A DNA stretch of 64,000 bases. Source: Burkholderia cepacia ATCC 25416 (lineage in GTDB: Bacteria > Pseudomonadota > Gammaproteobacteria > Burkholderiales > Burkholderiaceae). The stretch lies in NCBI RefSeq assembly GCF_001411495.1, contig NZ_CP012982.1, forward strand, positions 3,344,191-3,408,190, written 5' to 3'. Below the pieces are notes generated by a model. It was not told the DNA's origin and did no database searches. It was given only the letters and a program-made list of their open reading frames with translations. Below are positions 52,766 to 64,000 of the stretch, in pieces. A program made the translations under genes and the position numbers. The stretch's first letter is position 1. Each line of letters starts with the position of its first letter.

Positions 52766-55700
52766 ATGTGGATCGTCAATCTTGCGCTCAGGCGCCCCTA
52801 CACGTTCATCGTCATGGCCATCATGATCGTGCTGGCCACCCCGCTGGCGCTGATGCGCACGCCGGTCGACGTGCTGCCCGCGATCAACATCCCCGTGATC
52901 AGCGTCATCTGGAATTACAGCGGCTTCTCCGCGACGGAGATGACGAACCGCATCACGTCCGTGCATGAACGGATCCTGACGACGACCGTCAACAACATCC
53001 AGCACGTCGAATCGACGTCGCTGCCCGGCATCGCGGTCGTGAAGGTGTTCCTGCAGCCGGGCGCGAACGTGCAGACGGCGATCGCGCAGACGGTCTCGTC
53101 CGCGCAGGCGATCGTGCGGCAGATGCCGCAGGGCGCGACGCCGCCGCTCGTGATCACCTATTCGGCCTCGAGCATCCCGGTGATCCAGCTCGGGCTGTCG
53201 AGCAAGACGCTCAGCGAACAGTCGCTCGCCGACATCGCGCTCAACTTCCTGCGCCCGCAGCTGATCACGGTGCCGGGCGTGCAGATCCCGTTCCCGTACG
53301 GCGGCCGCACGCGCGTGGTCGCGATCGACCTCGATCCGCAGGCGCTGCTCGCGAAGGGGCTCACGCCCGCCGACATCGTCAACGCGGTCAACGCGCAGAA
53401 CCTCGTGCTGCCGACCGGCACCGCGAAGATGGGCCAGACCGAATACCGGATCGACACCAACGCGTCGGCCGATACGGTCGCCGACATCAACAACCTGCCG
53501 GTCCAGACCGTCAACGGCGCGACGACCTATCTGCGCGAGGTCGCATCGGTACGCGACGGCTTCGCGCCGCAGACCAACGTCGTGCGCCAGAACGGCCAGC
53601 GCGGCGTGCTCATCTCGATCCTGAAAAGCGGCGACGCGTCGACGCTCAAGGTCGTGTCGGACCTGAAGGCGCTGCTGCCGAAGGTGATCCCGACACTACC
53701 CGAAGGGCTCACGATCACGCCGCTGTTCGACCAGTCGGTGTTCGTCGACGCGGCCGTCCAGGGCGTGATCCACGAAGCGCTGATCGCCGCCGTGCTGACC
53801 GCGATGATGATCCTGCTGTTCCTCGGCAACTGGCGCAGCACGCTGATCATTGCGATCTCGATTCCGCTGTCGATCTTCACGTCGCTGATCGCGCTGTCCG
53901 CGCTCGGCGAGACCATCAACATCATGACGCTCGGCGGGCTCGCGCTCGCGGTCGGGATCCTGGTCGACGATGCGACGGTGACGATCGAGAACATCGAGCG
54001 GCACCTGCATCTCGGCACGCGCCGGGCCGCCCCAAGCGTGCCGAGCGCCCCCCTCGGGGGGCAGCGACCGGAGGGAGCGTGGGGGTCGTCGTTCAGTACG
54101 AACCTGCATGACGCGATCCTCGAAGGCGCCGGCGAGATCGCGGTGCCCGCGTTCGTGTCGACGCTGTGCATCTGCATCGTGTTCGTGCCGATGTTCTTCC
54201 TCACGGGCGTCGCGCGTTTCCTGTTCGTGCCGCTCGCGGAAGCCGTCGTGTTCGCGATGCTCGCGTCGTACGTGCTGTCGCGCACGCTGGTGCCGACGCT
54301 CGCGATGCTGCTGTTCCGCCCGCAGCAGGCGAGCGCCGGCCCGGATCGTTCGACGTCGCGCTTCGCACGCATCCATCACGCGTTCAACGAAGCGTTCGAG
54401 CGGCTGCGCGCGTGGTACATCGTGCTGCTCAGCATCCTGCTGGTGCGCCGCCGCTTCTACGCGACGTGCTTCCTCGGCTTCTGCGTGCTGTCGACCGGCC
54501 TCGTATTCGTGCTCGGCCGCGACTTCTTCCCGAACGCCGATTCGGGCAACATCCGCCTGCACATGCGCGCGCCGACCGGCTACCGGATCGAGGAAACCGC
54601 GCGCCTCGCCGACCAGGTCGAGCGCGTGATCCGCGCAACCGTGCCGCCCGACGAGCTCGGCGCGATCGTCGACAACCTCGGCCTGCCGGTGAGCGGCATC
54701 AACCTGTCGTACAGCAACGCCGGCACGATCGGCACGCTCGACGGCGAGCTGCTGATCGCGCTGAAGCCCGGCCACCGCGCGACCCAGCACTACGTGCAGG
54801 CACTGCGCACGGTGCTGCCCGAGCGCTTCCCGGGCGTCGAGTTCTTCTTCCAGCCGTCGGACATCATCACGCAGATCCTCAACTTCGGCCAACCGGCCGC
54901 GATCGACCTGCAGGTGCTCGGCAACGATCTCGCGAGTAACATGACTATCGCGAGCAGCCTGATGAAAAAGTTCAGGCAAATCCCCGGCGCCGTCGACGTG
55001 CACGTGCTGCAACGCAACGACGAGCCGACCCTGCTGGCCGACATGGACCGTACGCGCATGCAGCAGCTCAATCTCTCCGCGCAGAACGTCGCGCAGAACA
55101 TGCTGATCTCCCTGTCCGGCAGCTCGCAGACGACGCCGTCGTTCTGGATCAACCCGCGCACCGGCGTCCAGTACCCGCTGCAGATCCAGACCCCGCAATA
55201 CAGCATCTCGTCGGTCGACGACCTGCTCGGCACGCCGATTTCGGCGAGCGGCCGCACGGGCATGCCGCTGCAACTGCTCGGCAACCTCGTGCAGGTGCGC
55301 AGCACCGCGAACCCGGCCGTGATCACGCACTACAACATCCGCCCGGCGATCGACGTGTACGTGAGCGTCGAGGGCCGCGACCTCGGCGCGGTCGCGGGCG
55401 AGATCGACCGCATCGTGTCGGACGCGCGCGCGACGCTGCCGCGCGGCACCGAGCTGACGATGCGCGGCCAGATCGAGACGATGCGCACGTCGTACCTCGG
55501 CCTCGGCGCGGGCGTCGCGATGGCGATCGTGCTCGTCTACCTGCTGATCGTCGTCAATTTCCAGTCGTGGCTCGACCCGCTGATCATCATCAGCGCGATG
55601 CCGGCCGCGCTCGCCGGCATCGTGTGGATGCTGTTCATCACCGGCACGCACCTGAGCGTGCCCGCGCTGACGGGCGCGATCATGACGGTGGGCGTCGCGA

Positions 55701-56014
55701 CCGCGAACAGCATCCTGGTCGTGTCGTTCGCGCGCCAGCGTCTCGAAGCCGGCGCGCCGCCGCTCACGGCCGCGCTGGAGGCCGGCGCGACACGGATCCG
55801 GCCGGTGCTGATGACGGCGCTCGCGATGATCATCGGGATGGTGCCGATGGCGCTCGGTCTCGGCGAAGGCGCCGAGCAGAACGCGCCGCTGGGCCGCGCG
55901 GTGATCGGCGGGCTGCTGTTCGCGACCGTTTCGACGCTGCTGTTCGTGCCGCTCGTGTTCGGCGGCGTGCATGCGCGGCTGGCCCGCCGGCGCGCGCGCC
56001 AGGCCGGACACTGA
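52766..56014 (+). CDS. RND efflux pump inner-membrane permease (HAE1 type)
   Basis: A 1082-residue RND permease: 'ALRRPYTFIVMAIMIVLATPLALMRTPVDVLPAINIPVI' opens TM1, Asp401-Asp402 in TM4 (ILVDDATV) carry the proton relay, and two large periplasmic loops are present. Class is HAE1 (multidrug) rather than heavy metal. Residues 419-445 are an extra 27-residue segment between TM4 and TM5 (cytoplasmic side) that relatives lack; it is encoded by an inserted hairpin-rich element. ATG 52766 has no strong ribosome site. Gene order is permease, adaptor, outer-membrane channel, then a two-component system. Confidence 0.93.
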   Translation: MWIVNLALRRPYTFIVMAIMIVLATPLALMRTPVDVLPAINIPVISVIWNYSGFSATEMTNRITSVHERILTTTVNNIQHVESTSLPGIAVVKVFLQPGANVQTAIAQTVSSAQAIVRQMPQGATPPLVITYSASSIPVIQLGLSSKTLSEQSLADIALNFLRPQLITVPGVQIPFPYGGRTRVVAIDLDPQALLAKGLTPADIVNAVNAQNLVLPTGTAKMGQTEYRIDTNASADTVADINNLPVQTVNGATTYLREVASVRDGFAPQTNVVRQNGQRGVLISILKSGDASTLKVVSDLKALLPKVIPTLPEGLTITPLFDQSVFVDAAVQGVIHEALIAAVLTAMMILLFLGNWRSTLIIAISIPLSIFTSLIALSALGETINIMTLGGLALAVGILVDDATVTIENIERHLHLGTRRAAPSVPSAPLGGQRPEGAWGSSFSTNLHDAILEGAGEIAVPAFVSTLCICIVFVPMFFLTGVARFLFVPLAEAVVFAMLASYVLSRTLVPTLAMLLFRPQQASAGPDRSTSRFARIHHAFNEAFERLRAWYIVLLSILLVRRRFYATCFLGFCVLSTGLVFVLGRDFFPNADSGNIRLHMRAPTGYRIEETARLADQVERVIRATVPPDELGAIVDNLGLPVSGINLSYSNAGTIGTLDGELLIALKPGHRATQHYVQALRTVLPERFPGVEFFFQPSDIITQILNFGQPAAIDLQVLGNDLASNMTIASSLMKKFRQIPGAVDVHVLQRNDEPTLLADMDRTRMQQLNLSAQNVAQNMLISLSGSSQTTPSFWINPRTGVQYPLQIQTPQYSISSVDDLLGTPISASGRTGMPLQLLGNLVQVRSTANPAVITHYNIRPAIDVYVSVEGRDLGAVAGEIDRIVSDARATLPRGTELTMRGQIETMRTSYLGLGAGVAMAIVLVYLLIVVNFQSWLDPLIIISAMPAALAGIVWMLFITGTHLSVPALTGAIMTVGVATANSILVVSFARQRLEAGAPPLTAALEAGATRIRPVLMTALAMIIGMVPMALGLGEGAEQNAPLGRAVIGGLLFATVSTLLFVPLVFGGVHARLARRRARQAGH
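54020..54100 (+). repeat. 81-bp palindromic element inserted in frame
   Basis: An 81-bp insert lies between copies of ACG at 54017-54019 and 54098-54100 (a likely 3-bp target duplication). Inside, GCCCCC (54047-54052) and GGGGGC (54057-54062) form a stem with CTCG loop. The composition (GGGCCGCCCCAAGCG start, GGGAGCGTGGGGG end) looks like an intergenic repeat of Burkholderia; the length is a multiple of three and no stop arises. Confidence 0.75.
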
Positions 56015-56060
56015 CTTTCGTCCCCTTTCGTCCCACTACCCGGTTGAATTGGTTGAATTC

Positions 56061-57290
56061 ATGGAAGAGAAACATCACAGCGCCGTCGGCATCCAGGTGG
56101 ACGAACACGGCATGCACCTGCCGACACGCACGTCGGTGTCGCGACGCGGACGCATCGTCCTGATCGTGATCGGCGTGCTGCTGGCCGCCGGCGCCGCGCG
56201 CACGATCGTCGTCAACGTGCTGAACCGCAACCGGCTCGACACGGTCGCCGAGCAGAACACGCGCCAGTACGTGACCATCGCGCATCCGGTCGATGCGGCC
56301 ACCGGCGGCAAGCTGTCGCTGCCCGGCACGCTGCGCGGCTTCGTCGAGGCGCCGATCTATGCACGCGCGAGCGGCTACGTGCTGCGCTGGCAGGCCGACA
56401 TCGGCGCGCACGTGAAGCAGGGCCAGGTGCTCGCCGAACTCGACACGCCCGAGCTGAACCAGGAACTCGCGCAGGCCACCGCGCAGCGCCAGCAGGCGCA
56501 AGCCGCACTCGCGCTCGCGAAGACGTCGTTCGACCGCGCGCAGCAGTTGCGCCAGCGCGATGCCGTCTCGCAGCAGGAACTCGACGACCGGCAAGGCGCG
56601 TTCAACCAGGGCACCGCGAACCTCGCCGCGGCCGACGCGAACATGCGCCGCCTCACCGAGCTGAAAGGCTTCCAGCGGATCGTCGCGCCGATCGACGGGA
56701 TCGTCACGCAGCGCAACGTCGACGTCGGCGATCTCGTCAGCTCCGGCAACGCGGGGCGTTCGCTGTTCACGGTCGTGCAGGCCGACCGGCTGCGCCTCTA
56801 CGTGCAGGTGCCGCAGGCGTACGCGCAGCAGGTGAAGGTCGGCCAGCACGTGAGCGTCGCGCAGGCCGAGCTGCCGGGCCGGACGTTCGACGGGACGATC
56901 ACGCGCACGTCCGAGGCGATCGACGTCGCGACGCGCTCGCTGCAGATCGAGATCACGCTGCCGAACCCGGACGGGCGGCTGCTGCCCGGCGCCTACGTGC
57001 AGGCCACGTTGCCGATGACGCCGGTCGGCCGCCTGCAGGTGCCGGCCAATACGTTGCTGTTCCGCGCCGAAGGCCCGACGGTCGCGACGGTCGATGCGAA
57101 CGGCCAGGTGCGCCTGAAACAGGTGACGGTCGTACGCACGATCGGGCAGACGCTCGAAGTCGACGGCCCGCTCACGCCGAACGACCGTCTCGTCACGAAC
57201 CCGAGCGACGCCCTCGCCAACGGCGATCAGGTGATCGTCTCGGTGCCGGCCGCGAAGCCGGCATCGAGCGCCGCGGAGGCGAAGTCGTGA
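56061..57290 (+). CDS. RND periplasmic adaptor (membrane fusion protein)
   Basis: A 409-residue HlyD-type adaptor: an N-terminal cytoplasmic tail and one TM (about 35-55), a lipoyl domain ('YARASGYVLRWQADIGAHVKQGQVLAELDTPEL'), a coiled-coil hairpin (about 135-195, Ala/Gln-rich) and beta-barrel domain. ATG 56061 is the conserved start (MEEKHHSAVG). It lies 46 bp after the permease gene and its stop overlaps the next start by 4 bp (GTGA). Confidence 0.92.
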   Translation: MEEKHHSAVGIQVDEHGMHLPTRTSVSRRGRIVLIVIGVLLAAGAARTIVVNVLNRNRLDTVAEQNTRQYVTIAHPVDAATGGKLSLPGTLRGFVEAPIYARASGYVLRWQADIGAHVKQGQVLAELDTPELNQELAQATAQRQQAQAALALAKTSFDRAQQLRQRDAVSQQELDDRQGAFNQGTANLAAADANMRRLTELKGFQRIVAPIDGIVTQRNVDVGDLVSSGNAGRSLFTVVQADRLRLYVQVPQAYAQQVKVGQHVSVAQAELPGRTFDGTITRTSEAIDVATRSLQIEITLPNPDGRLLPGAYVQATLPMTPVGRLQVPANTLLFRAEGPTVATVDANGQVRLKQVTVVRTIGQTLEVDGPLTPNDRLVTNPSDALANGDQVIVSVPAAKPASSAAEAKS

Positions 57291-58807
57291 TCGCGATGCG
57301 CATCCGCCGGCGGCCCGCCGCCGTCTCCGCCACCGCCGTTGCGCTCGCCGCCGCCCTCGCCGGCTGCACGGTCGGCCCCGACTACCGGCGGCCCGACGTC
57401 GCCACGCCGGCCGCGTGGCGGCTCGATCCGGCCGATGGGTACTGGCACCCGGCCGCGCCGGCCCGCGCGCCGCTCGACCCGGCATGGTGGACCGCGTTCG
57501 GCGATCCGCAGCTCGACGCGCTGGAAGCCGAAGCGCTGCGCAACAACCAGAACCTGAAGGCCGTCGCCGCGCGCTACGACCAGGCGAAGGCGACGCTCGC
57601 GTCGGTCGCCTCGGCGCAGTATCCGGCCGTCGGCCTGAACGCGAGCGGCCAGCGCTTCAAGATCTCGGCCGACCGGCCGCAGACCAACTACGCGACGCAG
57701 AGCGCGTCGACCGTGCAGAACGACGTCCAGGTCGGCGCGAGCGTCAGCTACGAGCTCGACCTGTTCGGCCGCGTGCGGCGCAGCGTCGAATCGGCGCAGG
57801 CCACCACCGAACAGGCGCGCGACGATTTCGCGAACGCGCGCCTGGTGCTGACCGCCGATCTCGCGTCGAGCTATTTCGCGCTGCGCGAATTCGACACCGA
57901 GATCGACGTCGTCAAGCGCTCGATCGACCTGCAGCAGAAGGCGCTCGACTACGTGAGCGCGCGGCACGACCTCGGCGCGGTGTCGGGCCTCGACCTGCTG
58001 CAGCAGCGCGCGCAGCTCGACGCGACGCGCACCCAGGCGCAGCTGCTGCTCCAGCAGCGCGTGCAGGTCGAAACCGCGATCGCGACACTGGTCGGCACGC
58101 CGGCCCCCACCTTCTCGATCGCGCCGCGCGTCGTGCCGATCAATGCGCCCGCGCTGCCGACCGGCCTGCCGAGCGACGTGCTGCAGCGGCGCCCCGACGT
58201 CGCGTCGGCCGAGCGCGCGATGGCCGCCGCGAATGCGCAGATCGGCGTCGCGCGCGCCGCGTATTTCCCGCGCATCACGCTGTCGCCCGACATCGGCTGG
58301 GACGCGACGCGCTTCGCCGGCCTGTTCACCGTCCCGGCGTTGCTGTGGTCGGTCGGCGGGTCGCTCAGCCAGCCGCTGTTCGAAGGCGGCAAGCTGAAGG
58401 CCGGCGTCGATTTCGCGCAGGCCGGCTATGTCGCCGCGCAGGCCAATTACCGGCAGACCGTGCTCACCGCGTTCCAGGAGGTGCAGAATGCGGTCACCGG
58501 GTTGTCGGTGCTCGCGGAGGCCGCGCAGCAGGCCTCCGCGGCCGTCGACGACGCGCGCAAGCTCGTGTCGCTCGCGCAGGATCGCTACGCGGGCGGCCTG
58601 ACGCCGTTCATCGACGTGCTGACAGCCGAGCAGCAGTTGCTGACGAGCGAACGGCAGGCCGTGCAGATCCAGGGCCAGCGCGCGGCGCTCGTCGTGTTTC
58701 TCGCGAAGGCGCTCGGCGGCGGCTGGGACGGCCAGGCGGCAAGCGGCCCGGCGCCGGCCGAGGTCGCCGCAGCCCCGGCACCGGCGCCAGCGCCCCCGGG
58801 CCCTTAA
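57287..58807 (+). CDS. RND outer-membrane channel lipoprotein (NodT/OprM family)
   Basis: A 506-residue outer-membrane factor. The signal sequence ends in a lipobox LAGC (Cys at about residue 27), followed by 'TVGPDYRRPDVATPAAW', the standard NodT start. Two coiled-coil repeats and 'AAYFPRITLSPDIGWD' follow. Start GTG 57287 overlaps the adaptor stop (GTGA); ATG 57296 is possible too. It forms the exit duct of the tripartite pump. Confidence 0.93.
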   Translation: MIAMRIRRRPAAVSATAVALAAALAGCTVGPDYRRPDVATPAAWRLDPADGYWHPAAPARAPLDPAWWTAFGDPQLDALEAEALRNNQNLKAVAARYDQAKATLASVASAQYPAVGLNASGQRFKISADRPQTNYATQSASTVQNDVQVGASVSYELDLFGRVRRSVESAQATTEQARDDFANARLVLTADLASSYFALREFDTEIDVVKRSIDLQQKALDYVSARHDLGAVSGLDLLQQRAQLDATRTQAQLLLQQRVQVETAIATLVGTPAPTFSIAPRVVPINAPALPTGLPSDVLQRRPDVASAERAMAAANAQIGVARAAYFPRITLSPDIGWDATRFAGLFTVPALLWSVGGSLSQPLFEGGKLKAGVDFAQAGYVAAQANYRQTVLTAFQEVQNAVTGLSVLAEAAQQASAAVDDARKLVSLAQDRYAGGLTPFIDVLTAEQQLLTSERQAVQIQGQRAALVVFLAKALGGGWDGQAASGPAPAEVAAAPAPAPAPPGP

Positions 58808-58835
58808 CCGGATTACGCGGACAACGGATTCGAAC

Positions 58836-59531
58836 ATGAAAGTCCTGATCGTCGAAGACGAACCGAAAGTCGTCGAGTACCTGAAGAGCGGCCTGACCGA
58901 GGAAGGCTGGGTCGTCGATACCGCGCTCGACGGCGAGGACGGCGCGTGGAAAGCCGTCGAATTCGACTACGACGTGGTCGTGCTCGACGTGATGCTGCCG
59001 AAGCTCGACGGCTTCGGCGTGCTGCGTGCGTTGCGCGCGCAGAAGCAGACGCCCGTCATCATGCTGACCGCGCGCGACCGCGTCGACGACCGCGTGCGGG
59101 GCTTGCGCGGCGGTGCCGACGACTACCTGACCAAGCCGTTCTCGTTCCTCGAGCTGATCGAACGGCTGCGCGCGCTGACGCGCCGCGCGCGCGTGCAGGA
59201 ATCGACGCTGATCTCGATCGGCGACCTGCGGGTCGACCTGATCGGCCGCCGCGCGACCCGCGACGGCACGCGGCTCGACCTGACCGCACAGGAATTCCAG
59301 CTGCTCGGCGTGCTCGCGCGGCGCAGCGGCGAGGTGCTGTCGAAGACGACCATCGCCGAACTCGTGTGGGACGTGAACTTCGACAGCAACGCGAACGTCG
59401 TCGAAACGGCGATCAAGCGGTTGCGCGCGAAACTCGACGGCCCGTTCGCGGACAAGCTGCTGCATACGATCCGCGGCATGGGCTACGTGCTCGAGGCGCG
59501 CGAGGACGGCGATACCGAGAGGCCGGCATGA
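58836..59531 (+). CDS. OmpR-family response regulator (heavy-metal type)
   Basis: A 231-residue response regulator: receiver domain with Asp51 as phosphate acceptor (VVVLDVMLP) and Lys about 101 (YLTKPF), and a winged-helix DNA-binding domain (about 130-228) with 'VVETAIKRLRAKLDGPFADKLLHTIRGMGYVL'. It resembles CusR/CopR/IrlR regulators. ATG 58836 is 28 bp after the channel gene and its stop overlaps the kinase start, so it is part of the pump operon. Confidence 0.93.
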   Translation: MKVLIVEDEPKVVEYLKSGLTEEGWVVDTALDGEDGAWKAVEFDYDVVVLDVMLPKLDGFGVLRALRAQKQTPVIMLTARDRVDDRVRGLRGGADDYLTKPFSFLELIERLRALTRRARVQESTLISIGDLRVDLIGRRATRDGTRLDLTAQEFQLLGVLARRSGEVLSKTTIAELVWDVNFDSNANVVETAIKRLRAKLDGPFADKLLHTIRGMGYVLEAREDGDTERPA

Positions 59532-60994
59532 AACGCTCGATCGTCCTGCGGCTGTCGGCGATGTTCGGCATCGTGTCGCTGCTCGTGTTCACGCTGGTGG
59601 GCTGCGGGCTGTTCGTGATGATGGAGCGCCAGCTGTTCGCCGAGCTGCGCGCGACGCTCGATACGCGCACCAAGGTCGCCGAGATGATCGTGTCGCACGC
59701 GCTCACGTCCGAACGCGGGCGCCTCATGCAGGAAAAGCTCGCCGATCTCGAACCGCCCGACGGCTCGACGCGCTACCAGGTCGACAGCACGAATCCGGAT
59801 TTCCGGTTCGGCAAGCCCGTCGACGGCGTGCCCGTCGGCGCGCCGTTCGGCGCATTCCAGCGCTACGCGCTGAACGACAGCAGCTACGACGTGATGACCA
59901 AGACCGTCACGGTGGCCGGCAACGGCGAGCGGCCGACACTGAGGCTGATCGTCGCCAGCTCGTGCGAGCGCACGCAGCGGATGCTGCGCCGCTTCGGCTG
60001 GACGCTCGCCGGGCTGATCGCGATCGCGACGATCATCACGCTGCTGCTGAGCCGCGCGGTAGCCCGCTTCGGGCTCGCGCCGCTCGACCGGCTGTCGCAG
60101 GATGCATCGGCCATCAGCCTCGCGAACCGCCGCCAGCGGCTGCACACCGACGCACTGCCGGCCGAGCTGCGCGACCTCGCCACGTCGTTCAACGGCGCGC
60201 TCGATCGCATCCAGCAGACCTACGCGCGGCTCGAGGCGTTCAACGCGGACGTCGCGCACGAACTGCGCACGCCGATCAGCATCCTGATCGGCCAGACCCA
60301 GGTCGCGCTGACCAGCCGCGACCGCACCGTCGAGCGGATGCGGCAGACGCTGCAGTCGAACCTCGAGGAATTCGAGCGGCTGCGCGTGATCATCAACGAC
60401 ATGCTGTTCCTGTCGCGCAGCGACCGCGGCGAACGGGCAACCGACCTGAAGGACGTGTCGCTCGCCGACGAGGTGCGGCGCATGCTCGATTTCCTCGAGA
60501 TCCCGCTCGACGAGGCGCAATTGCACGCCGAACTGCACGGCGACGCGCGCGCGGCCGTCGATCCGTCGCTGTTCCGTCGTGCGATGACGAACCTGCTGAT
60601 CAATGCGATCCAGCATTCCGCGCCCGGCGCGACGTTGCACGTGACGATCACGCGCCGCGACACGCTCGTCGAGATGGCCGTGTCGAACCCCGGCGAGCCG
60701 ATCGATCCGGTGCAGCGCTCGCACGTGTTCGAACGCTTCTACCGGCTCGAGGAAGCCCGCGCGAACAGCAAGGAGAACCACGGGCTCGGGCTGTCGATCG
60801 TCAAGGCCGTCGCCGAGATGCACGGCGGCAGCGTATTCGTCGCGTGTTCGGGCGGCGTCAACACGTTCGGCTTCTCGGTGTCGACGGAACCCTGCGCGGG
60901 CGGACCGCTGCGCGCGGGAGACGCAACCGATGCAACCGGCGTGGTCGACTCCACCGATTCGCGGCCGGCGCACGCGCCGCGGGCGCTGCACTGA
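59528..60994 (+). CDS. Heavy-metal-type sensor histidine kinase
   Basis: A 488-residue CusS/IrlS-like kinase: TM1 (about 9-31), periplasmic sensor (about 32-155, rather short), TM2 (about 158-177), HAMP, His244 in AHELRTP, and an ATPase domain with 'NLLINAIQHS' and 'GLGLSIVKAVAEMHGG'. ATG 59528 overlaps the regulator stop by 4 bp. No His/Met-rich metal-binding motif stands out in the sensor, so the signal may be a drug or membrane stress. Confidence 0.92.
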   Translation: MKRSIVLRLSAMFGIVSLLVFTLVGCGLFVMMERQLFAELRATLDTRTKVAEMIVSHALTSERGRLMQEKLADLEPPDGSTRYQVDSTNPDFRFGKPVDGVPVGAPFGAFQRYALNDSSYDVMTKTVTVAGNGERPTLRLIVASSCERTQRMLRRFGWTLAGLIAIATIITLLLSRAVARFGLAPLDRLSQDASAISLANRRQRLHTDALPAELRDLATSFNGALDRIQQTYARLEAFNADVAHELRTPISILIGQTQVALTSRDRTVERMRQTLQSNLEEFERLRVIINDMLFLSRSDRGERATDLKDVSLADEVRRMLDFLEIPLDEAQLHAELHGDARAAVDPSLFRRAMTNLLINAIQHSAPGATLHVTITRRDTLVEMAVSNPGEPIDPVQRSHVFERFYRLEEARANSKENHGLGLSIVKAVAEMHGGSVFVACSGGVNTFGFSVSTEPCAGGPLRAGDATDATGVVDSTDSRPAHAPRALH

Positions 60995-61067
60995 CGGCGG
61001 CTGCGCCTGTCGACGTCCGGCCGCCTCCGATCGGCGCTTGCCGGCCACGAACGCGGCGCGGGACGCA

Positions 61068-62123
61068 TTACGCGCGCGGCTTGCCGCCCTGCTCGCGCCA
61101 CGCCCGCGGCGACATCGCAAACCGCTCGCGAAACACACGACTGAAATGCGACATGTCGTTGAATCCCCAGCGCAATGCGACGTCCGATACGCGCAGCGAC
61201 GCGCATTGCGGATTCGCGAGATCCTGCGCGCACCGTTCGAGCCGCAGGTTCCACACGTGACGCATCAGCGACGTCTCCTCGGCCTCGAAGAGCTTGTTGA
61301 TGTACCGCGACGAAATCCCGATCGAGCGCTCGATCATCATCGGGTTCAGCTCCGGATCGTGCAGGTGCTCGAGCACATGCCGTTTCACACGCGTCAGTGT
61401 CAACGCCTTCATCCTCGATTGCGCGAGGTCGTTGCGTTGCATGCCCCCGAGCGTCATCGCGATCAGCGTGATCGCGGTATCCGACAACTGCCGCATCTCG
61501 TCCTCGGTCACACTGCGGATCTGCGACGACATCTGCTCGAGAAACGCACGCATGACGCTGCCGACGCCGTCCCCGGTTTGCGTCGGGCACGCCGTGCGGT
61601 GCTCCATCCCGACGACGAGCTGGTTCAGCGTCGCACGGGGAATGCTGACGACGATCTCGCGCCACGACTGGCCGAACTGCAGGTGGTGAGGCCGTGTCGC
61701 ATCGTAGATCGCGAAATCCCCGGGATGCAGCGTGACGATCTTGCCGTCCTGTTCGACCGACTGGCTGCCCTCGAGCATCAAGACCCCGAAATACTTGTCC
61801 TCGTACTCGCTGCGCGCCTGGCGATAACGCCGTATCACGGCCTGCTCGCTCGCGTGGATTTCCGAGATTCGCATCTTTTCGCACTTGCGCTGCCGCACCC
61901 GGCCGAAGAAATCGGCTTTCTGCACGGCCGCGATCTGCACGTCCGCGAACAGGCGCAGAATCGTCTCGCGCCAGAATTCGATACGCTGGCTGACCGAGCC
62001 GTCGATCGGCACCTCGATGGCCGCGTTCGTCCGTTCGTCCAGCGGGCTGCCGGACGCCGGAACGGGCGCGTCGCCGCGTGCGGCGCGCGGGAAAGGACGC
62101 ATCGTCATGGTCGTGCCCCACAT
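61068..62123 (-). CDS. AraC-family transcriptional regulator
   Basis: A 351-residue regulator with an AraC-binding-like N-terminal domain ('IYDATRPHHLQFGQSWREIVVSIPR', about residues 147-171) and C-terminal HTH (about 250-345: 'SIGISSRYINKLFEAEETSLMRHVWNLRLERCAQDL' and 'DVALRWGFNDMSHFSRVFRERFAMSPRAWR'). ATG 62123 is the first of several; ATG 62108 and 62102 are possible. It lies 129 bp after the amidase on the same strand and may control it. Confidence 0.9.
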   Translation of the reverse strand: MWGTTMTMRPFPRAARGDAPVPASGSPLDERTNAAIEVPIDGSVSQRIEFWRETILRLFADVQIAAVQKADFFGRVRQRKCEKMRISEIHASEQAVIRRYRQARSEYEDKYFGVLMLEGSQSVEQDGKIVTLHPGDFAIYDATRPHHLQFGQSWREIVVSIPRATLNQLVVGMEHRTACPTQTGDGVGSVMRAFLEQMSSQIRSVTEDEMRQLSDTAITLIAMTLGGMQRNDLAQSRMKALTLTRVKRHVLEHLHDPELNPMMIERSIGISSRYINKLFEAEETSLMRHVWNLRLERCAQDLANPQCASLRVSDVALRWGFNDMSHFSRVFRERFAMSPRAWREQGGKPRA

Positions 62124-62252
62124 GGGTTAGCAAACACGCAGCCGACAGCGTGCCCGTTCAAAAGCGCATTGTCCAATCGATGACCGCGTACACCGCGTGG
62201 CCGGTCGAACCGGCACGCGGCGCGGCGGCGGCATGCTACCGCTCCGGGCATG

Positions 62253-63778
62253 TCATGCGCACGTCGTCCGACGCCAGTCGGACGACTGTTCATACGCATA
62301 CGCAACGCGGTAGAGCGTCGCCTCGTCGAAACGGGCGCCCGACCAGTTGCAGCCCGATCGGCAGATCGTCGGCTACCCCGCACGGCAGCGACATTGCCGG
62401 ATGCCCGGACACGTCGAACGGCGCGGTATTCGCGAGCATCTCGAACGCCCGCGTCAGCGACTCGGACATCGCGCAACCGGGCTCCGGCAGCTTCGACGCG
62501 CGCATCGGTACGGTCGGCATCAGCAATACGTCATACGACTGCAGCGCCGCGTCGTAAGCCGATCGCAAGCGTCGCGCGAGGTTCTGGCACTTCGCGTAGT
62601 AACGCCCGCGATACCGGCTCGTGAAGTATTCGCCCAGCAGCATCGTCACCTTCACGGTATCCGGCAACTCGTCGGCGCGCTCGCGCCAGCCCGCGTGATG
62701 ATCGATCATGCCGGTCACATACAGGCCGCCCCAGTTGAACCCGTGGCTGTTGCCCTTCATCATCTGCTGCGTCGCGCCCTCGGCCGCAATCGGCAGCCAG
62801 ATCGCGGTGCCGGCCGCATGCAGCGGCACCGACACTTCTTCGACGCGCGCGCCCAGCTTGCGCAACCGCTGCGTGGCGGCCCGCACGGCCTCGTCGACCA
62901 CTTTCTCCGAATTGGCAAGCCCGAACGCCTCGCGCAGGATGCCGATCCGCAATCCCGCGATGCCGTCGCGGATCGCGCCGAGATAGTCGGCGCGCGGCGG
63001 CAACGTCCGTTGGCGCGGATCGAGCCCGTCGTCGCCCGCGATCACGTCGAGCAGCAGCGCGTTGTCGAGCACGTTGCCCGTCATCGGCCCCAGATGATCG
63101 ACGGTTGCCTCGATCGGCATCGCGCCGGTGTACGGCACGAGCCCGTGCGTCGGCTTCATCCCGTAGATGCCGCAATAGGCGGACGGGATCCGCACCGAGC
63201 CGCCCTGGTCGCCGCCGAGCGCCATGTCGACCTCGCCGCTCGCAACCAGCGCGCCGCTGCCCGACGACGAGCCGCCGGACGAGTGCCCTGCCTTGCGCGG
63301 ATTGTGCACCGGCCCCGACGCGCTCGTGTGCGAGCCGCCGGAAAAGCAGTAGTACTCGCAGGTCGACTTGCCGGCGATCGTGCCGCCGGCGTCGAGCACC
63401 CGCGTGACGACGGTCGCATCGACATCGGGCACGTAGCCCTCGAACGTGGTCGAGCCATTGCGCATCGGCACGCCGGCGACGCAGATGTTGTCTTTCACGA
63501 CCACCGTCCTGCCGCGCAGCTTGCCGTCGGCGGCGCCGTGGATCGTGCTCTTGCGCGCCCACGCGCCGTAACGGTTCTCGTCGCCTTCCGGGCGGTAGCG
63601 GGCGTGCGCGGATACGCGACGACGGGCAGATAGTCGGGCAGCGCGTCGATCGCATCGTAGGCGTCGAAGTTCGCCTGCAAGGCATCGTCGTATTCGGCGA
63701 GTTGCCGGGAATCGAGATGAAGCCGAAGCCGGCTGCCATATCGGACAGTTGTTCGCGGGTCGGGCGTTTGATGGCCAT
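62253..63778 (-). pseudogene. Amidase gene broken by three frameshifts
   Basis: The whole length encodes an amidase-signature enzyme (about 500 residues if repaired): Lys in VVVKDN, Ser in GHSSGGSSSGS and Ser in GGDQGGSVRIPS form the Ser-cisSer-Lys triad. Three single-base shifts split it: a missing base near 63720 (after MAAGFGF), a missing base near 63599 (YPRTP then RPEGDENRYG) and an extra base near 62330 (VGRPF then DEATLYRVAYAYEQ). Repaired, the C-terminus ends at TGA 62253. ATG 63778 starts MAIKRPTREQLSD. It lies 55 bp from the upstream aldoxime dehydratase-like gene, so they formed one operon. Sequencing indels are the alternative explanation. Confidence 0.75.
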
Positions 63779-63803
63779 CGACGTTCTCCAGTTCGGTAAG
63801 CGG

Positions 63804-63823
63804 CACCGCCGGCCCCGGCGGTG
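63804..63823. terminator. Intergenic hairpin upstream of amidase
   Basis: CACCGCCGG (63804-63812) pairs with CCGGCGGTG (63815-63823) with a 2-base gap. Located between the aldoxime dehydratase-like gene and the amidase; may attenuate read-through. Confidence 0.55.
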
Positions 63824-63833
63824 CCGGCGGGAT

Positions 63834-64000
63834 TCAGCGGGCGATGGCGACGGCGTCGCGCATCATCCCGGTGCGCGGATGGCAGTTCACGTATTCGTAG
63901 ACCTGATGCTTCGCGTCGAAGACGGAAACCTCGTGATACAGCCGCAGTTTCGACAGCCCGGTGACGACGCGGAAGAACGTGACGAAGATCCGCAGGTGCG
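63834..64000 (-). CDS. Probable aldoxime dehydratase, C-terminal end (partial)
   Basis: The last 54 residues of a protein running off the window edge: HLRIFVTFFRVVTGLSKLRL, then YHEVSVFDAKHQVYEYVNCHPRTGMMRDAVAIAR and a stop at 63834-63836. The 'LYHEV...EYVNCHPRTGM' ending matches my recollection of heme-containing phenylacetaldoxime dehydratases, which convert aldoximes to nitriles. Amidase and AraC genes beside it fit an aldoxime-nitrile-amide pathway. Only a short segment is visible. Confidence 0.55.
   Translation of the reverse strand, partial: HLRIFVTFFRVVTGLSKLRLYHEVSVFDAKHQVYEYVNCHPRTGMMRDAVAIAR

What the first reader, a model, noticed from the sequence alone, without database searches (positions are those of the whole stretch)
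54020..54100. Palindromic 81-bp element inserted in frame in an RND pump gene
The permease has 27 extra residues (419-445) in the loop after TM4, flanked by two ACG triplets that look like a target duplication. The DNA contains a GC-rich stem-loop and looks like a Burkholderia intergenic repeat. The insertion keeps the frame and adds a Pro/Gly/Ser-rich loop on the cytoplasmic side, so it may be a case of a non-coding repeat being domesticated as protein.
Basis: partly seen in the sequence, partly recalled or inferred. Interest (0 to 1): 0.75.

Follow-up and report, generated by a model that had tools for sequence, protein, structure and literature searches.

The report
Mobile mini-repeat inside pump gene
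A copy of a short, hairpin-forming DNA repeat that often sits between neighbouring genes has gone into a bacterial efflux-pump gene without breaking the reading frame, so the pump carries a 27-residue spacer; the repeat family itself looks like a tiny mobile gene, for which we found no description.

Summary
Confirmed. Window 54020-54100 is an 81-bp in-frame insert in an RND permease gene. 14 of 59 Burkholderia orthologues carry it, always 27 codons. It belongs to a dispersed repeat family found in 75 of 249 genomes of the bacterial family and in Variovorax, Acidovorax and Azoarcus plasmids. The 14 pump copies form one clade against 56 other copies, which points to one original insertion; presence is patchy (well supported branches force 6-7 gains or losses). 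The flanking repeat is about 8-9 bp (TCGGCACG), not just ACG. Domestication is not supported at the pump: dN/dS of the insert is about 1.8, adjacent windows stay at or below 0.25, so it looks tolerated, with only the frame kept. The wider finding is stronger. On its other strand the repeat is a mini-ORF (MKRPPRSLRSLPPEGAVSLLGAARRRLT*) that often sits at stop/start junctions and starts and ends in ATGA overlaps; core variants of 22-69 codons keep that frame. It also forms in-frame N-terminal extensions (an ABC permease, SdhE) and an internal insert in an Acidovorax phosphoglycerate kinase. No Rfam match, terminal inverted repeat, constant REP tag or mover was found.

The parts
52766..56014 (+). 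RND efflux permease gene, 1082 codons, that carries the insert
   Evidence: best match among solved structures by sequence is MdtB
54020..54100 (+). the 81-bp in-frame insert (27 codons)
   Evidence: absent from 45 of 59 genus orthologues
54011..54019 (+). left arm T, CTCGGCACG; the same bases stand here in insert-less orthologues such as G001, G017, G022, G043
54020..54036 (+). conserved 17-nt loop X, CGCCGGGCCGCCCCAAG
54037..54045 (+). arm T', CGTGCCGAG, exact reverse complement of T (9 of 9)
   Evidence: family covariation
54048..54061 (+). second hairpin, C6-TC-G6
54064..54078 (+). third, weak hairpin GCGACC-GGA-GGGAGC (in the family its two middle pairs are non-standard in 44 of 47 aligned rows)
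54092..54100 (+). right direct repeat TTCAGTACG (TTCGGCACG in G031, G034, G006)
54020..54100 (-). strand on which family members elsewhere read as a mini-ORF; the pump reads the opposite strand

Best explanation
The 81 bp are one copy of a short structured mobile repeat, about 83 bp long, spread through Burkholderiaceae and some other Betaproteobacteria. It inserted once into a pump allele at a site that matches its end (TCGGCACG). Because this copy is 81 bp and open, the pump stayed in frame and gained a Pro/Gly/Ser/Arg-rich loop on the cytoplasmic side. The loop is tolerated rather than selected for its sequence. The insert then spread between species, or was lost precisely, or both. Shown: identity of the repeat, single clade, frame, patchiness, no visible amino-acid constraint. 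Inferred: mobility (from empty and filled sites), insertion guided by end matching, cytoplasmic position, harmlessness.
For: Family copies: 52 of 65 genus genomes by DNA match (up to 14 candidates scored per genome); 75 of 249 family genomes, 8 of 25 genera, by covariance model (up to 18 scored). Own genome: 9 model matches at E<=0.01, 2 of them the same pump copy, the weakest 2 (E 2e-4, 1e-3) doubtful. Arm covariation: 8 of 9 T/T' pairs change on both sides (46 of 51 distinct copies plus the window); T against T' 8.0 of 9 complementary in 52 distinct copies, shuffles 5.35, highest of 2000 6.13 (shuffles ignore relatedness). Empty alleles among the 30 best loci read per locus: locus 1, 5; locus 2, 3; locus 3, 23. 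Pump copies are one clade against 56 others, 99/92 (few columns, bootstrap not settled). dN/dS. A second internal in-frame case: Acidovorax temperans phosphoglycerate kinase.
Against: No mover was found: 14 Y1-transposase (PF01797) loci in 10 genomes carry no copy in flanks of up to 1.5 kb. The insert's nucleotide divergence (0.071) is below the fourfold divergence nearby (0.121) and its dS is low (0.047), so some constraint or a younger age is possible. Its dN is not unique in the gene: at least five of 118 27-codon windows have a higher dN (0.10-0.13), with ratios 0.29-0.65. The ratio in three other frames of the insert is 0.46-0.54. The match of T to native sequence is not general: full at the pump, partial at locus 1, absent at loci 2 and 3. 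No structure model was obtained.
Confidence: 0.85

Rival explanations
1. Domestication: the 27 residues have a selected role in the pump, for example regulation or partner binding at the cytoplasmic face.
For: Kept in 14 species, always 27 codons without an indel; low dS inside it (0.047); at another locus the same family became an N-terminal extension with dN/dS 0.43-0.53 in frame against about 1-1.9 in the two other forward frames, though one reverse frame is as low (0.29-0.57).
Against: dN/dS 1.85 in the pump insert; 45 of 59 orthologues do without; G006 has changed many of its residues and keeps the gene open.
Confidence: 0.12
2. Patchiness by one old gain and many precise losses: slipped pairing between the 8-9 bp repeats, helped by the hairpins, deletes exactly 81 bp and restores the empty allele.
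For: Direct repeats flank the insert; pump copies are one clade; insert-bearing rows include early branches.
Against: 9 or 8 changes needed on the gene's own half-trees, 6 on a gyrB tree of 30 genomes; insert divergence does not follow that of its neighbourhood (r = 0.03; G000 and G058 differ at 0 of 81 insert bases but at 18 of 172 fourfold sites).
Confidence: 0.4
3. Patchiness by lateral spread: very short gene-conversion tracts, or repeated homing of the same lineage to the same site, carry the insert into empty alleles.
For: The two pairs with identical inserts share only 6 and 11, and 0 and 3, identical bases to the left and right; G000 is sister to insert-less G009 in both gene halves, and in 12 windows around the site its best insert-less relative is as close as or closer than its best insert-bearing one.
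Against: 81 bp hold little signal; recombination of the flanks among these species could remove the correlation as well.
Confidence: 0.4
4. Assembly or annotation artefact.
For: The window lies at a contig end whose last 10.4 kb are repeated at its start.
Against: The same insert is in 13 other genus genomes, in L008 and in a protein cluster of 156 members named from Burkholderia ambifaria.
Confidence: 0.01

Closest known systems
Rickettsia palindromic elements (RPE)
   Same: Short palindromic repeats inserted in frame into protein genes (passages of PMC10969869).
   Different: About 150 bp and described from Rickettsia; this family is about 83 bp, in Betaproteobacteria, often at stop/start junctions. 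No sequence comparison with RPEs was made.
ERIC / RU-1, RU-2, RU-3 of enterobacteria
   Same: Small mobile repeats that carry open frames and fuse in frame to genes (passages of PMC2759123).
   Different: 103-168 bp, enterobacterial; the passages seen describe no ATGA-to-ATGA mini-ORF. No sequence comparison was made.
GTAG and CGTC REPs with RAYT transposases
   Same: Short hairpins, many intergenic copies, some inside ORFs (passages of PMC3733652).
   Different: Neither tag is a constant part: GTAG occurs in 5 and CGTC in 10 of 56 copies; none of 14 Y1_Tnp loci has a copy in its flanks.
Bacterial MITEs
   Same: Small, without a transposase gene, dispersed, flanked by short direct repeats.
   Different: No terminal inverted repeats (mean 4.9 of 15 matches, highest 7); direct repeats differ in length from site to site (8, 9, about 4, 7 bp).

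Membership tests
REP (GTAG/CGTC) with RAYT | GTAG or CGTC tag at one end | tested here: not met
   5 and 10 of 56 copies contain the tetramer anywhere on either strand; the pump copy contains CGTC
REP (GTAG/CGTC) with RAYT | RAYT gene flanked by the repeat | tested here: not met
   14 loci in 10 genomes, no copy in flanks of up to 1.5 kb; other genomes not tested
MITE | terminal inverted repeats | tested here: not met
   mean 4.9, highest 7 of 15
MITE | target-site duplication of fixed length | tested here: not met
   9, 8, about 4 and 7 bp at four sites, read by eye
Rfam families | match at gathering score | tested here: not met
   none in the window or in 10 loci; best 17.2 bits against a gathering score of 70
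RPE-like in-frame palindromic insert | palindromic repeat read in frame inside a conserved protein | tested here: met
   pump; phosphoglycerate kinase. Kinship to RPEs by sequence not tested
RND permease | PF00873 over its cut-off along the whole protein | tested here: met
   680 bits against 28, residues 3-1066

The most novel reading that the evidence does not exclude
The repeat is a mobile mini-cistron. It inserts at stop/start junctions of operons, where one end supplies an ATG that overlaps the upstream stop and the other a TGA that overlaps the downstream start, so translational coupling of the host operon survives the insertion. Its arms re-pair with each other (and at some sites with the target), its core is exchangeable as long as the frame is kept, and mishaps of frame or place turn it into N-terminal extensions or internal linkers of host proteins. 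The pump insert is one such mishap, read on the other strand.
Probability: 0.35. Interest if true: 0.8.

Novelty: new variant of a known kind. Interest (0 to 1): 0.6.

Why it matters
In-frame palindromic inserts are known from Rickettsia, enterobacteria and some REP families. Here is a family in Betaproteobacteria, for which seven literature searches gave no description, with many empty and filled sites in close species. That makes two questions testable: how tiny repeats without terminal inverted repeats or a known mover spread, and how they can live inside dense operons. A repeat built as a start-to-stop cassette would be a simple answer to the second. It also supplies natural experiments on how enzymes and transporters tolerate spacers of about 22-33 residues.

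Tried and rejected
Rfam: nothing at gathering score. Y1 transposase as mover: no association. Literature: no description of this family was found in seven searches of the held open-access library; subscription papers are mostly not held, so absence from print is not shown. Papers: passages only of PMC3733652, PMC10969869, PMC2864759 and PMC2759123; all others as search listings with abstract starts. An early idea that each copy's arm T is always copied from the target was dropped: T is native at the pump, partly at locus 1, not at loci 2 and 3. A first gyrB tree was void because some rows were read on the wrong strand; one search replaces it. The permease trees included a stray long row (G063) and are replaced. 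Some genes were first read on the wrong strand and re-read. The structure prediction never produced a model: busy; accepted at 79; unfinished at 83, 85, 87, 89; failed at 91; switched off at 98. Residue labels printed are one too high. Rows dropped: 4 misread loci (L041, L042, L059, L077); G063 from trees and counts; genomes G014 and G064 (only distant homologues) and G020, G038, G042 (no match at E<=1e-100) have no orthologue in the count; the covariation alignment used 46 of 51 distinct copies, leaving out L171, L252, L253 and one unit each of L241 and L242, of which L253 pairs worst (5 of 9). Of 14 plasmid records six were opened; eight were not.

Full report
What is there. The ORF at 52766-56014 (+) codes for a 1082-residue RND permease. 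At 54020-54100 it holds 81 bp that most relatives do not have. In titled genome records 76 of 80 loci could be read at the site: only Burkholderia sp. SRS-46 (L008) has the insert, in the same place and frame. In the genus set, 62 of 65 genomes gave a match at E<=1e-100; the gene was read in 60, of which 59 are orthologues and one (G063, 62% identity) is not counted. 14 of the 59 carry the insert, always 27 codons, never with an indel. A protein search restricted to residues 405-456 gave one hit at E<=0.001 among 1002 candidates, a cluster of 156 members named from Burkholderia ambifaria. The flanking repeat is CTCGGCACG on the left and TTCAGTACG on the right in the window, TTCGGCACG in G031, G034 and G006; ACG alone understates it.

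What it belongs to. A 71-bp query finds copies in 52 of 65 genus genomes at E<=1e-4. A covariance model built from 46 of 51 distinct copies plus the window finds them in 75 of 249 genomes of the family, 8 of 25 genera. Among plasmid records 14 match, from Burkholderia (5), Paraburkholderia (4), Variovorax (3), Acidovorax (1) and Azoarcus (1). The own genome has 9 model matches at E<=0.01, two of them the same pump copy because the contig's last 10.4 kb are repeated at its start with 99.95% identity.

Anatomy. Copies read T (9 nt), a nearly constant 17-nt loop CGCCGGGCCGCCCCAAG, T' (9 nt), a C/G hairpin, a weak third hairpin and commonly GTGGGGGTCGTTTCAT. T and T' are complementary at 8.0 of 9 positions on average in 52 distinct copies; re-dealing T' among copies gives 5.35, highest 6.13 in 2000, a control that ignores relatedness. 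In the alignment 8 of 9 T/T' pairs show changes on both sides and 93.6% of cells pair; sliding the partners of the whole structure by one to three columns lowers paired cells from 87% to 35-51%. The single pump copy does not fold better than shuffles, so the structure claim rests on the family.

Empty and filled sites. For each of three loci the 30 best loci of a 65-genome search were read; other genomes' split hits were not. Locus 1 (own copy at C2:202220): 25 filled, 5 empty; four of the five empty alleles read GATCATGTCAGCGCTCC (the fifth, G009, GATCATGAAAGCGCTCC), and filling gives GATCATGTCAGC-CTCCGCC...GTCGTTT-CATGTCAGCGCTCC, a 9-bp direct repeat; other species hold longer cores or tandem units there. 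Locus 2: 27 filled, 3 empty. Locus 3: 7 filled, 23 empty; GTGTTTCAT is the native left side and the repeat is GTTTCAT. With the pump, four sites give direct repeats of different length and sequence, which looks more like matching of the element's end to the target than a fixed duplication (inference). In 30 of 56 copies (21 of 40 with distinct left flanks) CAT stands directly left of T; in 22 of 56 it opens a reverse ORF of at least 100 codons.

The other strand. Read on the opposite strand, locus 1 copies are mini-ORFs such as MKRPPRSLRSLPPEGAVSLLGAARRRLT*. A pattern search for their start over 78 loci (so an ATG is by construction) gave 59 distinct reads; 58 start in ATGA. 50 end in an ATGA whose ATG opens a further ORF of 16-465 codons (gene B or the next tandem unit), 4 stop elsewhere, 5 run on as long ORFs; of the 50, five are not clean (two 2-codon reads, one from an upstream ATG, two that run on through gene B). 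Single-unit alleles at locus 1 have insert lengths 65, 83, 104, 113, 131 and 206, all 2 modulo 3, in 16 of 18; the two exceptions (78 and 132 bp, L269 and L277) fuse in frame with the downstream gene. Of 7 tandem alleles 5 have the length that whole units of that kind would give. At locus 3 the three lengths 83, 98 and 104 are also 2 modulo 3. Selection on the mini-ORF peptides is weak at best: dN/dS 0.63-1.23, not clearly lower than in other frames. A 44-residue version finds only 2 database proteins at E<=0.01 among 3 candidates.

Named contexts. Six of 14 plasmid hits were opened, five of them with annotation. In these five the copy lies at a junction of co-directional genes or in the following gene: between two transketolase genes (Azoarcus), between gnd and zwf and between ABC transporter genes (two Variovorax; mini-ORFs again run from the upstream stop to the downstream start), in an N-terminal extension of SdhE as annotated (Paraburkholderia; MINPHAPYRSLPPEGAVSPLGSGPARTD before MDESS), and inside phosphoglycerate kinase (Acidovorax temperans). 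That kinase reads ...FIRADLNVPL, about 24 extra residues, then DDSGRITEDTRIR..., where E. coli 1zmr is continuous. This is a second internal in-frame case; no empty Acidovorax allele was looked up.

N-terminal extension. At locus 2 the downstream ABC-type permease begins MSGFQTLFYK in the empty genomes and, for example, MNQQPPRELRSLPPEGAPGTLGAARRVPGSGFQTLFYK when filled. The 27 filled alleles have six extra lengths (66, 69, 75, 84, 90, 99 bp), all multiples of three; several are far diverged from the family consensus. Of 30 alleles 28 were read by script; dN/dS in frame is 0.43-0.53 in the three larger groups against about 1-1.9 in the +1 and +2 frames and 1.0-2.4 in two reverse frames, while the third reverse frame is as low (0.29-0.57). 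So at this locus the peptide may be constrained, unlike in the pump.

Selection and history at the pump. Over the 14 alleles the insert has dN 0.086, dS 0.047, ratio 1.85; adjacent windows range from 0.001 to 0.25. Codon bootstrap gives 0.68-21, and 0.0015 of resamples fall below 0.5; without G006 the ratio is 1.57. Against this: at least five of 118 27-codon windows elsewhere in the gene have a higher dN (though ratios of 0.29-0.65), and three other frames of the insert give 0.46-0.54. The reading frame was kept and nothing more is visible; the number of changes is small and the low dS is unexplained. Pump inserts are one clade against 56 other copies (99/92, few columns). Yet on trees of the two gene halves (59 rows) presence needs 9 or 8 changes, of which well supported branches force 6 or 7, and a single clade is rejected (p 3e-53 and 0.0036); a gyrB tree of 30 genomes needs 6, forced 4. 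Insert divergence does not track fourfold divergence in 150 codons on each side (r = 0.03), and G000 and G058 share an identical insert with 18 of 172 fourfold differences nearby. Lateral spread and precise loss between the direct repeats both remain open.

Mechanism and verdict. Most likely the insert arose when a copy went into a target resembling its own end, the length happened to be a multiple of three, and the site was a permissive turn: by alignment to MdtB it lies shortly after the conserved DD pair of TM4, on the cytoplasmic side (topology recalled from AcrB). What moves the element is unknown. In-frame palindromic inserts are an established kind, so the pump case is a new variant; the stop/start mini-cistron habit of the family is the part that would surprise a specialist.

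Noticed in passing
G000 contig C2, first and last 10.4 kb (window 53615-64000 is the repeated end): Terminal redundancy of the contig, 99.95% identical with 5 gaps; an untrimmed circular assembly would explain it, and it makes the pump look duplicated.
   Followed up: yes
L165 and orthologues (L311-L340): ABC-type permease with an element-derived N-terminal extension of variable length, in frame in all 27 filled alleles read, dN/dS 0.43-0.53.
   Followed up: partly
L392 860-1000: Acidovorax temperans phosphoglycerate kinase with an internal in-frame copy of the family.
   Followed up: partly
L272-L276, L281, L283, L290, L363-L365: Same ends with different cores (such as GGAGCCGTGCATGGGACCGG or CCCTGCACGTTCGGGAATCGG), as if cores were exchanged while the frame was kept.
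   Followed up: partly
L309 and orthologues (G000 C1:1226944): A Y1-transposase-like (RAYT-like) gene of about 271-279 codons in each of the 10 genomes searched, Pfam score near the cut-off, no copy of the repeat in its flanks.
   Followed up: partly
L163, L165 copies: The third hairpin has standard pairs where most aligned copies have two non-standard G/A pairs in its middle, which hints at a structured RNA or single-strand DNA motif.
   Followed up: no
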